Of a DNA stretch of 20,113 nt, positions 1,942 to 7,261 are shown one piece after another. Positions within the stretch are counted from its first letter, which is position 1; every line of letters begins with the position of its first letter. Below the pieces are notes generated by a model. The model was not told the origin of the DNA, did no database searches, and saw nothing but the letters and a program-made list of their open reading frames with translations. The translations under genes were made by a program, and so were the position numbers. Origin of the DNA: a virus; IMG/VR virus record IMGVR_UViG_3300035698_014414, positions 1 to 20,113 of that record. One strand, 5' to 3'.

Positions 1942-2286
1942 ATGAAAATAGCAAAAATACCTATCGAAGTTATCCTGGATAGCTTTAAGAAAGTTTCAGA
2001 GGTTTCGTCAACAAGAGTAATGTCTTATCTTACGTGGAAGTTCACAAAATGGTGGATGATCATGTTTGGTGGTGTTATGCTCATTATGTTTGTTATAGAT
2101 GCCTTTGGATGGGCAAATGTAGATACTGATGTATTTGATGGTATGTTCAAATTTTTCACCTGGAGTGTAATTATACTACTGACTGCCACATATACACCAA
2201 AGAGCCTATCACAAATCGCTGATAAATTTGGCGGTATAAAATTCTTTAATACTGATAAAGATGAAGGATTAAAAAATGATAAATAA
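1942..2286 (+). CDS. holin-like membrane protein
   Basis: This 114-residue protein has two hydrophobic segments, at about residues 37-54 (WWMIMFGGVMLIMFVIDAF) and about 72-84 (WSVIILLTATYTP), and charged ends with a Lys/Asp-rich tail. The TPKSLSQIADK stretch after the second segment resembles the PK-x-L-x-x-hA signature I associate with phage holins that control membrane permeabilisation and lysis timing. It is followed immediately by the cell-wall hydrolase, whose start overlaps its stop (TAATG), as expected for a lysis cassette. A strong SD sequence precedes it. The family assignment rests on topology and position, so it is probable rather than certain. Confidence 0.65.
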   Translation: MKIAKIPIEVILDSFKKVSEVSSTRVMSYLTWKFTKWWMIMFGGVMLIMFVIDAFGWANVDTDVFDGMFKFFTWSVIILLTATYTPKSLSQIADKFGGIKFFNTDKDEGLKNDK

Positions 2287-2738
2287 TGAATTCATCAAAT
2301 AATTACGTAATGGGCGATATGCTTTGTATGGCACTTTCTCAATATGGAATAAAAGAGATAGTTGGCAGCAAGCACAATGCAGAGGTATTAAAATACTTTA
2401 GCGAGATAGGTCATTCATGGGTAAAGAATGATGAATTGGCATGGTGCAGTGCCTTTATCAATTGGTGTGCAAAAATGACCGGATATGAATATACCGGCAA
2501 GCTAAATGCACGATCATGGCTTAAGATAGGAGAAACCTTAGACAAGCCTGAGATTGGCTGCATAGCTGTTTTATGGCGAAATGGTAAAAACAGTCCCTAC
2601 GGCCATGTAGGATTATTTATCGCTGAGGATGGTGATAATATCTGTATACTCGGAGGAAACCAGAACAATCAGGTGAAGATCGCACGCTATCCAAAGAATC
2701 GTGTGCTTTCATATCGAAAACTAAATAAAATAGCATGA
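2286..2738 (+). CDS. endolysin: Cys/His peptidase of the TIGR02594 (CHAP/NlpC-P60-like) type
   Basis: The 150-residue product matches the pattern of TIGR02594 phage cell-wall hydrolases: AWCSAFINWC with the likely nucleophile Cys54, an ARSWLK-type segment at 75-80, the GHVGLF motif with catalytic His107, and GGNQNN at 123-128 supplying the third polar residue. Such enzymes cut peptide bonds in peptidoglycan. The length is typical for a single catalytic domain with no wall-binding domain. There is no signal peptide, so release would depend on a holin, consistent with the gene just upstream. The start overlaps the holin stop and the end overlaps the next start (ATGA at 2735-2738). The family call is strong; the exact bond cleaved cannot be read from sequence. 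Confidence 0.85.
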   Translation: MNSSNNYVMGDMLCMALSQYGIKEIVGSKHNAEVLKYFSEIGHSWVKNDELAWCSAFINWCAKMTGYEYTGKLNARSWLKIGETLDKPEIGCIAVLWRNGKNSPYGHVGLFIAEDGDNICILGGNQNNQVKIARYPKNRVLSYRKLNKIA

Positions 2739-3428: not shown

Positions 3429-4052
3429 ATGAGCTGGCTAAGATATAACGATGAAATAGGAAAGGTAGAGATCGCCCCTGAAGCAATGGAGTTTGCAGAG
3501 GTAAAGAAAGTCTATGCCAGGGATAGAAGAAACGATACAAAGCCATTCTTTAATAAGGTCATAACCTATGTTTATCATGCTTATGCAAAACCACCACATG
3601 CACTTGCGGACATATTTCCAACGGAAAGAAAACGCAGGGTGTGTAATTCATATTTTGCAGGAGAAGATGTTACAGTTTTAGAAAAAGAAGATGATGTTGT
3701 TGCTCTTATAGATCTTTACAAAGAAGATTCTGGATCTACTGTTGAGAATTTCTTCGAACAACTAAAATATGAGATGGAAGGAATGCTAAAGCATTACAAT
3801 ACTATCCCAATGGTTCGTAAGCAAAAGGTAAAGAAAAAAGTTACTGTTAATTACATGGACAGTGAAGGACATGCACAAGAACAGGAAGTTGAGATTAATG
3901 TGATGATGGAAATGGATAACAGTGAGGAAAAGATGAAAGTATTCCAGGCTGCTGATAAACTGATCGATCTATTCAAAAAGATGAAGGAAAAGGTTGTTCA
4001 GGAACGTAAAGAAAAGAAAAAGGAAACAAGAAGAAGATTTGACAAAGCATGA
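3429..4052 (+). CDS. conserved-looking phage protein before TerL, candidate small terminase
   Basis: The gene begins one base after the spanin-like stop, and its own stop overlaps the terminase start (ATGA at 4049-4052). The 207-residue product is highly charged. The N-terminal part (IAPEAMEFAEVKKVYARDRR, then KVITYVYHAYAKPPHALADI) resembles a protein I recall next to the large terminase in Bacteroidota phages. The last 50 residues are Lys/Glu-rich and helical, ending KKETRRRFDKA, suitable for nucleic acid binding or oligomerisation. I see no confident helix-turn-helix. The small terminase subunit, which recognises the packaging site, is the natural guess from position, but the sequence alone does not prove it. 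Confidence 0.5.
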   Translation: MSWLRYNDEIGKVEIAPEAMEFAEVKKVYARDRRNDTKPFFNKVITYVYHAYAKPPHALADIFPTERKRRVCNSYFAGEDVTVLEKEDDVVALIDLYKEDSGSTVENFFEQLKYEMEGMLKHYNTIPMVRKQKVKKKVTVNYMDSEGHAQEQEVEINVMMEMDNSEEKMKVFQAADKLIDLFKKMKEKVVQERKEKKKETRRRFDKA

Positions 4053-7000
4053 GGTTCCGTGATACAAAAAGATTTTCGCCCGTAGTCGAACTCGGTGACA
4101 CCCCACATAGGGATGACTATTATCATATAAAGCCAAGCCTTATAACGGATGAACTTATTCAAAGCGGAGAACACTTCGTTGATGATGAGTGGTGGGATCG
4201 TCAGCATGAGAGATGCCAAGATGGCTTTACTATAAAGGATGCTATTGAGCCCGGTGGAGATTTTCTTATTGATGGGGTTGATTGTTTCTGGTCAAAGGAT
4301 AAAAGAGATTGTTACATACCAATGTATGATCTTCATATAAAGGATAGAACAGTACATATATCCGGAAGATTCTATTTCTATTTAAACTTCTGGTCTATCT
4401 ATGCAAGAGTCGTAGGCACAAAACGGAAAGCAGTAATACCGCCTCGTTTTATTTCTCTCGACTTTTTCTTTTCTCGTAGAATAGAAATGATGTTCGATCA
4501 GTCAAAAGATGGACAGGAACTGAAAGGAAGACAAGAAGGTTTTTCTGAAAAGTGTGCCGGTATGCTGATTGGATATAACTATACCTTTATCCCTGCTTCA
4601 GTAAATGTTATTGTGGCCGGAGTACAGGAAGATGCCGATAAGACTTTTGGTAACTGCGTTCGCGGTCTTGATTATTTAAAGAATACACAGTTCTATAAAG
4701 AAAAAGGAAGACTATCGGTAACTGATGGTATCAGTACAGCCAAAAACTATCATTCAGAAATCCATGCCCTAACAGCAAACCATAAACCACAAGCAGTATC
4801 TCGCCTATCTCCTACATTTGTTCTATATGAGGAAATAGGTAAGGGTCATAAGAAGTGGTCTTTAAAAGTTGCTGGTTTTGTTAAGCCTTCAATCTATACT
4901 GAAGGGATGAAAACTGGCTGGCAGGTCTTCATCGGTTGTGTGTGTGCGGGAACTAAAGTTTGGACTAATAATGGAGAATTAGTAAATATAGAAGATCTAA
5001 AACAATCAGATGGAATATTGGGATATAATGGTACCGGTGTTAATAAAGAGCCGATTACTAATATGAATCCCCCAAGACAAAAACCTTGTTATAGAATAAC
5101 TACTTCCGGAGGAAATACTCTTGAATGTTCAAATGATCATCCTTTAATGTGGAGTAAGAATCATTTTACAAAACAAGATAAGAGTAAAGACATTTTTCAA
5201 AGAAAAGCTATTAAATTTAAAAAAACAGAGGATGTTAAGGTTGGTGACCAATTAATTACAATAGAAGAAGTTCCTATATTTGGAAATAGGGAAGAGAAGA
5301 ATGCAAAGTTATTTGGTTTATTAGTTGGAGATGGAAACTATTCTCATGATTTTACTCCAGTTTTATCAGTAGCAGATAATGAGATTTACGATTGGGTAAA
5401 TAGTAATTATGATACAAAAGACTATAAAACATTTCCTTTAACTGATGGAAGGATATTTCATAATGTTGCTATAAGAAAATTCACTCATCTATTAAAAGAT
5501 AATAAAATGAGAGGTCAGTCTGGTATATCAAAAAGATTACCAGATGATATTGATTCATATAATAAAAAATCGTTGGCTGAATTTATTGGTGGATATTATG
5601 ATGCTGATGGCAATGTTTATATTAATGGGAAAAGATCAAGAGTTGTTTTAACGAGTAAAGTCTATTTATTACTTGAGCAAGTTAAATATCAATTAAGAAA
5701 ATTCGGAATACATTCAAGTATATGTGAAGAAAAAAGGCATAGTGTATCTATTGGTTATGAGGGTGCGCAGCCAATAATATTTAGATTATACATAAATTCA
5801 TTTGATTCAATAAAAAAGTTTCATGATAATATTCCATTATTGTGTAATCATAAAAAAGAATTACTTCAAGAAATTATTTCTAATGATAGGAAAGACAGAA
5901 AGAAAATTGATAAAGCTGTTTTCGTTTATGATGAAGATAATAAAAAAGGAAAATATTTTATTGGCATGACCGAAATGTCAGGATTGAAATATGAGATTGT
6001 GTCAAAAATAGAATATATAGGGATGCAGGATGTATATAATCTAACTGCTGGTGATACACATACCTATATAGCAAATGGATTTGTCACATCAAATACCGGT
6101 GGCGACATGGATGAGGGTGGTTATGATCTGGAACAAAGACATTTCTTTCCTAATAAGTATAACATTCTTGCATTTAAAAATGTATTTGAAAAAGAAATTG
6201 ATCCTACCGGAGATGAGGTAGGACACTTTACCGGAAAGCAATGGTTCCATATTGTTGATGATGATGGAAATCCATTAGTACAAAAGAGCCTTAAAGCAAT
6301 CGAAAAAGAGATTCTTGAGTCTGATGAAGATGAAAGGCATTTACAGCGTTCTCAGTGGGCTACTACGGCTTCTGATGCTCTTATGAGAAGTACTGTTGGA
6401 TTCTTTGGGGAAAACGTGTGTGAGTACCTTAGAAAGCGTAATCAGTACATAATGTCGCATCGCGAAGAAAGGGTTCTAAGAAGGGGGAGGCTTGTTCCAA
6501 TTAATTCAACTAAGCCATGGGATGGTGTTAAGTTTGTTCTCGATGAGAAAGAAGGATGGATAGAAATTCTTGAAGAGCCAGAACTTGACTATGATGATAA
6601 GCCATTTACGGATCTTTATAAAGGTGGTGTTGATAGTTACGATCAGGATGAAGCACATACTTCGGATTCAAAGGGTGCAATGATTATTAAGAAGGGTTTC
6701 AGAAAGGATAGTAAATCTCCGCATTACAATACAACTGTTGCCATGATTGTTGAAAGACCTACAGAAAAAGAGGGTGGCGCGCCTGTATTTTACTTTCATA
6801 CTATACTTGCAGCAATCTATTATAATGCTAAAATAAATATTGAGTATTCAAATCTTCGTATATTTGACCATTACATAAACAATGGGTATGAGGTTTTACT
6901 TCACGAAAGACCACGTTTAGCATTTGCCGGAAAGATTCAGAGAAGCCAGGTAAGTAATCGTTACGGAACAGATAAGAGCCTAAAGCCACAGATCCTTGCT

Positions 7001-7261
7001 ATTAAAAAGGATTCACTCTCACGGGAAGTAATAGAAATGATGTATTTCCCTGCAGAAATAGAAGCCTTGTCAAAATTTATATATGATCCATCTGGAAAGA
7101 AATATAATTGCGATATCACAATAGCATCATGTGAGGCTGAGGTTATAGTAAAGGAAGCTGAGTTTGTTGTAATCAAATCAAGAGAGAAGTCAATAACCGA
7201 ACTTGCTGGAGTTATTAGATTCAGAAGAAGAAATGGAAAACTTACAAAACAATTAATATGA
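4049..7261 (+). CDS. terL: terminase large subunit precursor containing an intein
   Basis: The 1070-residue precursor encodes the DNA-packaging ATPase/nuclease. Before the intein there is a Walker A-like GRQEGFSEK (160-168), with Phe in place of the usual lysine, and a Walker B-like PTFVLYEEIGKG (255-266, acidic pair Glu261-Glu262). Residues 297-682 form the intein. Splicing would join WQVFIG (291-296) to TGGDMDEGG (683-691), restoring the coupling motif and giving a 684-residue enzyme, a normal TerL size. The C-terminal half has a nuclease-like arrangement: Asp862 in GGVDSYDQDEA, Glu932 in KINIEYSN and Asp1022 in CDITIASC are my candidate metal ligands. The start overlaps the upstream stop and the end overlaps the portal start (ATGA both times). 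The protein would dock on the portal and pump DNA into the prohead. Confidence 0.88.
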   Translation: MRFRDTKRFSPVVELGDTPHRDDYYHIKPSLITDELIQSGEHFVDDEWWDRQHERCQDGFTIKDAIEPGGDFLIDGVDCFWSKDKRDCYIPMYDLHIKDRTVHISGRFYFYLNFWSIYARVVGTKRKAVIPPRFISLDFFFSRRIEMMFDQSKDGQELKGRQEGFSEKCAGMLIGYNYTFIPASVNVIVAGVQEDADKTFGNCVRGLDYLKNTQFYKEKGRLSVTDGISTAKNYHSEIHALTANHKPQAVSRLSPTFVLYEEIGKGHKKWSLKVAGFVKPSIYTEGMKTGWQVFIGCVCAGTKVWTNNGELVNIEDLKQSDGILGYNGTGVNKEPITNMNPPRQKPCYRITTSGGNTLECSNDHPLMWSKNHFTKQDKSKDIFQRKAIKFKKTEDVKVGDQLITIEEVPIFGNREEKNAKLFGLLVGDGNYSHDFTPVLSVADNEIYDWVNSNYDTKDYKTFPLTDGRIFHNVAIRKFTHLLKDNKMRGQSGISKRLPDDIDSYNKKSLAEFIGGYYDADGNVYINGKRSRVVLTSKVYLLLEQVKYQLRKFGIHSSICEEKRHSVSIGYEGAQPIIFRLYINSFDSIKKFHDNIPLLCNHKKELLQEIISNDRKDRKKIDKAVFVYDEDNKKGKYFIGMTEMSGLKYEIVSKIEYIGMQDVYNLTAGDTHTYIANGFVTSNTGGDMDEGGYDLEQRHFFPNKYNILAFKNVFEKEIDPTGDEVGHFTGKQWFHIVDDDGNPLVQKSLKAIEKEILESDEDERHLQRSQWATTASDALMRSTVGFFGENVCEYLRKRNQYIMSHREERVLRRGRLVPINSTKPWDGVKFVLDEKEGWIEILEEPELDYDDKPFTDLYKGGVDSYDQDEAHTSDSKGAMIIKKGFRKDSKSPHYNTTVAMIVERPTEKEGGAPVFYFHTILAAIYYNAKINIEYSNLRIFDHYINNGYEVLLHERPRLAFAGKIQRSQVSNRYGTDKSLKPQILAIKKDSLSREVIEMMYFPAEIEALSKFIYDPSGKKYNCDITIASCEAEVIVKEAEFVVIKSREKSITELAGVIRFRRRNGKLTKQLI
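4937..6094 (+). mobile_element. intein with LAGLIDADG homing endonuclease inside terL
   Basis: This 386-residue in-frame element begins at Cys297 (CVCAGTKVW, with Thr at intein position 6 and Val at 8, as in block A) and ends at Asn682, before Thr683 as +1 residue (TYIANGFVTSN then T). Block B is GNTLECSNDHPL. Block F/G is VYNLTAGDTHTYIANGF onward, with Ser rather than His before the final Asn. The two endonuclease motifs are LFGLLVGDG (421-429, Asp428) and IGGYYDADG (513-521, Asp520), with RLPDDI between them. The open frame is intact, so splicing and homing may both be active. It is more AT-rich than the gene: by hand count 15 of 60 G+C at 5401-5460 against 24 of 60 at 6181-6240. That fits recent acquisition. 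Confidence 0.9.

What the first reader, a model, noticed from the sequence alone, without database searches (positions are those of the whole stretch)
4937..6094. Full-length intein splitting the terminase at its ATPase coupling motif
The intein begins at Cys297 and ends at Asn682, and the exteins rejoin as IG-TGGDM, in the expected place for the coupling motif between Walker B and the nuclease. DNA packaging would thus depend on protein splicing. Splicing elements and both LAGLIDADG motifs (Asp428, Asp520) look intact.
Basis: partly seen in the sequence, partly recalled or inferred. Interest (0 to 1): 0.75.

Follow-up and report, generated by a model that had tools for sequence, protein, structure and literature searches.

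The report
Intein in a phage packaging enzyme
A phage's DNA-packaging enzyme is interrupted at a functional motif by a complete, probably still mobile self-splicing protein element; this is real and precisely placed, but inteins in this enzyme, at this motif, are already known from other phages.

Summary
The 1070-aa ORF at 4049-7261 is a large terminase (TerL) carrying a 386-aa class 1 intein (Cys297-Asn682; nt 4937-6094), leaving a 684-aa product. Intein and LAGLIDADG profiles match; the AlphaFold model (pLDDT 90.9) aligns end to end with full-length inteins (Z 29.4 to TliVMA). The nearest TerL found (L194, 58% identical) lacks exactly these residues: LYIG|TGGDMDEGG against VFIG|TGGDMDEGG. 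A model of L194 matches T4 gp17 and puts the junction at the end of the strand after Walker B, i.e. motif III. Extein and intein trees conflict, and a related intein entered the same site independently in L074, so the element is mobile. One correction: not every splicing residue is canonical. The penultimate residue is Ser instead of His and block B has Ser instead of Thr; close relatives vary at the C-terminus too, and published phage inteins without this His still splice. TerL inteins are known in mycobacteriophages (one site in the C-motif) and crAss-like phages; Dulem virus 41 and 42 have homologous inteins at the identical junction. New member of a known kind; splicing and homing are inferred, not shown.

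The parts
4049..7261 (+). Large terminase (TerL) precursor ORF, 1070 aa
   Evidence: Open reading frame; phrog_6681 terminase large subunit E 1.2e-32
4049..4936 (+). N-extein, residues 1-296 (most of the ATPase domain)
   Evidence: Aligned to intein-free TerLs; fold of intein-free relative L194 matches T4 gp17
4526..4552 (+). Walker A-like loop GRQEGFSEK (residues 160-168)
   Evidence: R161, G164 and S166 invariant in 21 relatives
4817..4834 (+). Walker B strand and catalytic Glu, FVLYEE (residues 257-262)
   Evidence: E262 invariant; strand in the L194 model
4925..4936 (+). First half of motif III (coupling motif), VFIG, residues 293-296
   Evidence: G296 invariant; end of the strand after Walker B
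4937..6094 (+). Class 1 intein with LAGLIDADG endonuclease, residues 297-682, 386 aa
5282..5893 (+). LAGLIDADG homing endonuclease domain (about intein residues 116-319)
   Evidence: PF14528; aligned range of stand-alone endonucleases on the model
5309..5335 (+). First LAGLIDADG motif LFGLLVGDG, Asp428
   Evidence: D invariant in 40 inteins
5582..5611 (+). Second LAGLIDADG motif FIGGYYDADG, Asp520
   Evidence: D invariant in 40 inteins
6029..6094 (+). C-terminal splicing region (blocks F and G), ending HTYIANGFVTSN; penultimate Ser681, terminal Asn682
   Evidence: TIGR01443 at residues 661-683
6095..6103 (+). Second half of motif III, TGG, with +1 nucleophile Thr683
   Evidence: T683 invariant in 21 relatives; empty sites
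6095..7258 (+). C-extein, residues 683-1070 (rest of the ATPase domain and RuvC-like nuclease, Asp862)
   Evidence: nuclease-domain matches to RB49 gp17 for relative L194
7258..9930 (+). Portal protein gene directly downstream
   Evidence: phrog_6547 E 9.5e-29

Best explanation
A full-length class 1 intein with a LAGLIDADG homing endonuclease is inserted between Gly296 and Thr683 of a large terminase of the crAss-like type. Shown by sequence and model: exact insertion at motif III (the ATPase coupling motif), a complete intein and endonuclease fold, empty alleles in relatives, and separate acquisition of related inteins at the same site. Inferred: Cys297 attacks the bond after Gly296, Thr683 accepts the N-extein, Asn682 cyclises (block F His671 may stand in for the missing penultimate His), and the exteins join as VFIG-TGGDM to give the 684-aa packaging motor. 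Also inferred: the endonuclease cuts intein-less terL at the conserved GGN-ACN-GGN-GGN codons, and repair from the intein allele copies the element. Because it sits in an essential motif, only precise removal would be tolerated, which helps it persist.
For: Profiles; AlphaFold pLDDT 90.9 and end-to-end match to TliVMA, PI-PfuI and PI-SceI inteins, Z 25-29; exact gap in intein-free TerLs; empty site in L188-L194, with L194 58% identical over the spliced TerL; homologous inteins at the same G|TGG junction in about 35 TerLs, including Dulem virus 41 and 42; extein and intein trees in conflict, AU p 0.004 and 3e-5; L194 model matches T4 gp17.
Against: The penultimate His is Ser and the block B Thr is Ser, so splicing rate is uncertain. 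No splicing or cutting was measured. Correspondence with T4 motif III rests on structure, spacing and conservation; the sequence profile comparison was not significant.
Confidence: 0.92

Rival explanations
1. The intein is decaying: C-terminal cleavage is impaired by Ser681, or the endonuclease is dead, so the precursor splices poorly or only cleaves, and the phage tolerates or is losing packaging.
For: Non-canonical penultimate residue; relatives in the same subclade also depart from His-Asn.
Against: The ORF is intact without stops or frameshifts, both catalytic Asp and the fold are kept. Phage inteins with Gly, Lys or Ser at this position exist and a Gly one splices well.
Confidence: 0.1
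2. Splicing is conditional and acts as a timer or switch that holds TerL inactive until late infection.
For: The insertion splits the motif that couples ATP hydrolysis to packaging, so the precursor should be inactive; altered C-terminal residues could tune the rate.
Against: Close relatives do without it and no regulatory input was found; sporadic, horizontally moving occurrence is the pattern of a parasite.
Confidence: 0.07
3. The 386 residues are an ordinary accessory domain of this TerL and not an intein.
For: None found.
Against: Precise empty sites in relatives, end-to-end structural match to inteins, conflict between intein and extein trees.
Confidence: 0.005

Closest known systems
TerL inteins of crAss-like phages (Yutin et al. 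2021, PMC7886860), and homologous TerL inteins in GenBank phages Dulem virus 41 and 42
   Same: Homologous inteins (35-38% identical) with the same CVCAGTKV start; Dulem 41 and 42 have the identical G|TGG junction. The paper says Delta-group TerL typically contains an intein.
   Different: Those end in His-Asn, the window in Ser-Asn; the window TerL is only 24-26% identical to reference Crassvirales TerLs. cr53_1 has its intein six residues downstream; cr7_1 and cr118_1 have theirs at the nuclease site.
TerL6-f inteins of mycobacteriophages of clusters B3 and B4 (Kelley et al. 2016, PMC5050341)
   Same: Intein in the putative ATPase coupling motif of a phage large terminase; the Chandler gp6 representative was shown to splice.
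   Different: A different TerL family; no TerL6 intein was among the hits to the window's intein at E 1e-5.
Full-length LAGLIDADG inteins TliVMA, PI-PfuI, PI-SceI
   Same: Same complete architecture over all 386 residues, Z 25-29.
   Different: 15-22% sequence identity, other host proteins.

Membership tests
Class 1 intein | Nucleophilic Cys or Ser at position 1 and Cys, Ser or Thr at +1 | tested here: met
   Cys297 and Thr683; boundaries confirmed by empty sites
Class 1 intein | HINT splicing fold with N- and C-terminal splicing blocks | tested here: met
   TIGR01445, TIGR01443, PF14890; model Z 29.4 to TliVMA
Class 1 intein | Block B T-x-x-H | tested here: inconclusive
   His present and invariant; Thr replaced by Ser, as in the homologous inteins
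Class 1 intein | Penultimate His (common, not obligatory) and terminal Asn | tested here: inconclusive
   Asn682 present; penultimate is Ser681. Known inteins splice without this His
Class 1 intein | Autocatalytic splicing | not testable with these tools
   Needs expression
LAGLIDADG homing endonuclease | Two LAGLIDADG motifs with catalytic Asp | tested here: met
   Asp428 and Asp520, invariant in 40 inteins; PF14528 E 4e-16
LAGLIDADG homing endonuclease | Cutting of the intein-less allele | not testable with these tools
   Empty alleles exist, cutting not assayed; separate gains at one site fit it
Large terminase (TerL) as host protein | ATPase plus RuvC-like nuclease of the T4 gp17 kind | tested here: met
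   phrog_6681; intein-free relative L194 matches T4 gp17 ATPase Z 22 and RB49 gp17 nuclease Z 18
Insertion in TerL motif III (coupling motif) | Junction at the end of the strand that follows Walker B | tested here: met
   L194 strand 290-296 with junction at 295|296, after Walker B strand 256-260; T4 reads IIITTTPNG there; sequence profile match alone not significant
TerL6-f intein of Kelley et al. | C-motif insertion and common intein lineage | tested here: inconclusive
   Same motif by their description; kinship of the inteins not seen at E 1e-5
Crassvirales (window phage) | TerL, portal and major capsid protein within the order's clades | tested here: inconclusive
   TerL and portal match the phrogs also found with relatives, 24-26% TerL identity to members; no rooted tree of the order was made

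The most novel reading that the evidence does not exclude
A motif III-specific intein lineage has spread over many gut and environmental phage terminases. It sits at junctions three codons apart (G|TGG, GTGG|T, GTGGxEG|S), apparently sliding along the repeated Gly-Thr codons, and one member (MT835482) may have hopped to a different position with the same TGG in another TerL family. A subclade that includes the window's intein has given up the penultimate His and in part the terminal Asn (ends SN, AN, GN, KQ), which would mean a changed C-terminal cleavage step.
Probability: 0.35. Interest if true: 0.4.

Novelty: new member of a known kind. Interest (0 to 1): 0.22.

Why it matters
It is a clean case of an essential packaging motor that should be assembled only after protein splicing, with matched empty alleles for homing tests. 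The family gives a natural series (His, Ser, Ala, Gly, Lys-Gln ends; three neighbouring junctions) for studying how inteins tolerate the loss of catalytic residues and shift their insertion site. The principle itself is established.

Tried and rejected
Single-sequence scans of IMG/VR with the spliced TerL and with the intein found no relatives; profile scans did. An alternative intein start at Cys299 was set aside: homologues share CVCAGT and the empty site joins after G296. Profile search of solved structures with the intein-free TerL family found nothing by sequence and hhalign against T4 gp17 was not significant, so motif III was placed by structure, spacing and conservation. The hop of the MT835482 intein into another TerL family is suggested by the tree (branch 99/98), but the AU test does not reject a single origin of the upstream-site inteins (p 0.20), so it is not claimed. 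The window holds no tRNA gene. In one search PF14890 missed the nuclease-site inteins that can be read directly in L188 and L190, so that tally is not evidence of absence.

Full report
What is there. The ORF at 4049-7261 (+) encodes 1070 aa. Residues 297-682 (nt 4937-6094) start CVCAGTKVW and end HTYIANGFVTSN; without them 684 aa remain, joined as VFIG-TGGDM. The segment has GC 0.288 against 0.382 for the exteins, and no 1158-base stretch of the window outside it that was sampled is below 0.339.

It is an intein. TIGR01445 (intein N-terminus) begins at residue 297, TIGR01443 (intein C-terminus) covers 661-683, and PF14528 (LAGLIDADG_3) and PF14890 (Intein_splicing) match in between. In an alignment of 40 homologous inteins C1, H68, D132, D222, D224 and others are invariant. 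The AlphaFold model has pLDDT 90.9 and pTM 0.90. Foldseek and VIA-align put complete endonuclease-bearing inteins on top, aligned from residue 1 to 386: TliVMA Z 29.4, PI-PfuI 27.3, PI-SceI about 25.

The host protein is a large terminase. The extein matches phrog_6681 (TerL) and the next gene phrog_6547 (portal). All 16 intein-free relatives aligned here match phrog_6681. The model of the intein-free relative L194 (pLDDT 84.5) matches the T4 gp17 ATPase domain at Z 22 and the RB49 gp17 nuclease domain at Z 18.

Position. In relatives R161, G164 and S166 (Walker A-like) and E262 (Walker B) are invariant, and so are G296 and T683 on either side of the intein. In L194 the junction G295|T296 lies at the end of strand 290-296, the strand after the Walker B strand 256-260. 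T4 gp17 reads IIITTTPNG at the same relative place; that T285-T287 is its coupling motif is from my own knowledge. The claim 'coupling motif' is therefore well supported, by structure, spacing and conservation; the sequence profile comparison was not significant.

Empty alleles. cr50_1, ProJPt-Bp1 and phi14:2 show a gap exactly over the intein. Much closer relatives do too: L188-L194 (N-extein 54-60% identical) run straight through the site. L194 is identical at 394 of 678 aligned positions of the spliced TerL and reads LYIG|TGGDMDEGG.

Mobility. The TerL tree pairs the window with intein-free L194, and intein-bearing L074 with intein-free L197 (support 99 and 100). The intein tree instead groups the window with L015, L020 and L022, and L074 with L095. 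AU tests reject the window+L074 pairing for the intein (p 0.004) and the window+L015 pairing for the extein (p 3e-5). So the two inteins entered the same codon boundary separately. That the endonuclease drives this is inferred.

Ser681 replaces the penultimate His seen in most relatives, and block B has S-N-D-H where Thr is usual (this Ser is shared by the homologues). The window's nearest inteins end in AN, GN or KQ. Kelley et al. 2016 found Gly, Lys and Ser at this position in mycobacteriophage inteins, and their RDF intein with penultimate Gly spliced better than its His mutant; inteins with terminal Gln that splice are also known. I therefore expect splicing, with some doubt about rate.

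Novelty. Yutin et al. 2021 state that in Delta-group crAss-like phages TerL typically contains an intein. Kelley et al. 2016 describe seven terminase insertion sites, one (TerL6-f) in the putative coupling motif, and showed splicing for five terminase inteins and cutting for two. Dulem virus 41 and 42 in GenBank carry homologous inteins at the identical junction. This is a new member of a known kind. The mildly new part is the family view: three neighbouring junctions in motif III, one of them (GTGG|T) a single clade with support 99, and a subclade with altered C-terminal residues.

Noticed in passing
L188 from 4001, L190 from 4001 (C-terminal half of TerL): The window's close relatives lack the motif III intein but carry another one at the nuclease active site (YKAG|CLLPGEK...YHN|CDSYDQD), the same site as in cr7_1 and cr118_1: two TerL sites are occupied in alternation.
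   Followed up: partly
L016, L017, L018, L020: Related motif III inteins end in Lys-Gln (NTYLSNMYITKQ|TGG) with Asn in place of the block F His: a natural Gln-ending intein subclade.
   Followed up: partly
L003 4001-5068 (MT835482): A homologous intein sits in a different TerL family before the motif III strand (MLSA|TGGTLVKVGTTG) with the same TGG after it; possible hop between non-equivalent sites, AU test inconclusive.
   Followed up: partly
L095 3001-4107: A 36% identical TerL intein at the same junction lies on a contig binned as a Lachnospiraceae MAG, though its TerL is nearest to that of crAss-like cr50_1; probably a misbinned phage contig.
   Followed up: no
L002 (Dulem virus 42, PP511876): In the GenBank record the TerL with its intein is split into several short CDS, apparently because in-frame TAG codons were read as stops.
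   Followed up: no
window 2286-2738: A 150-aa CHAP-domain protein (E 3.4e-8), a likely lysin, lies upstream of the packaging genes.
   Followed up: no
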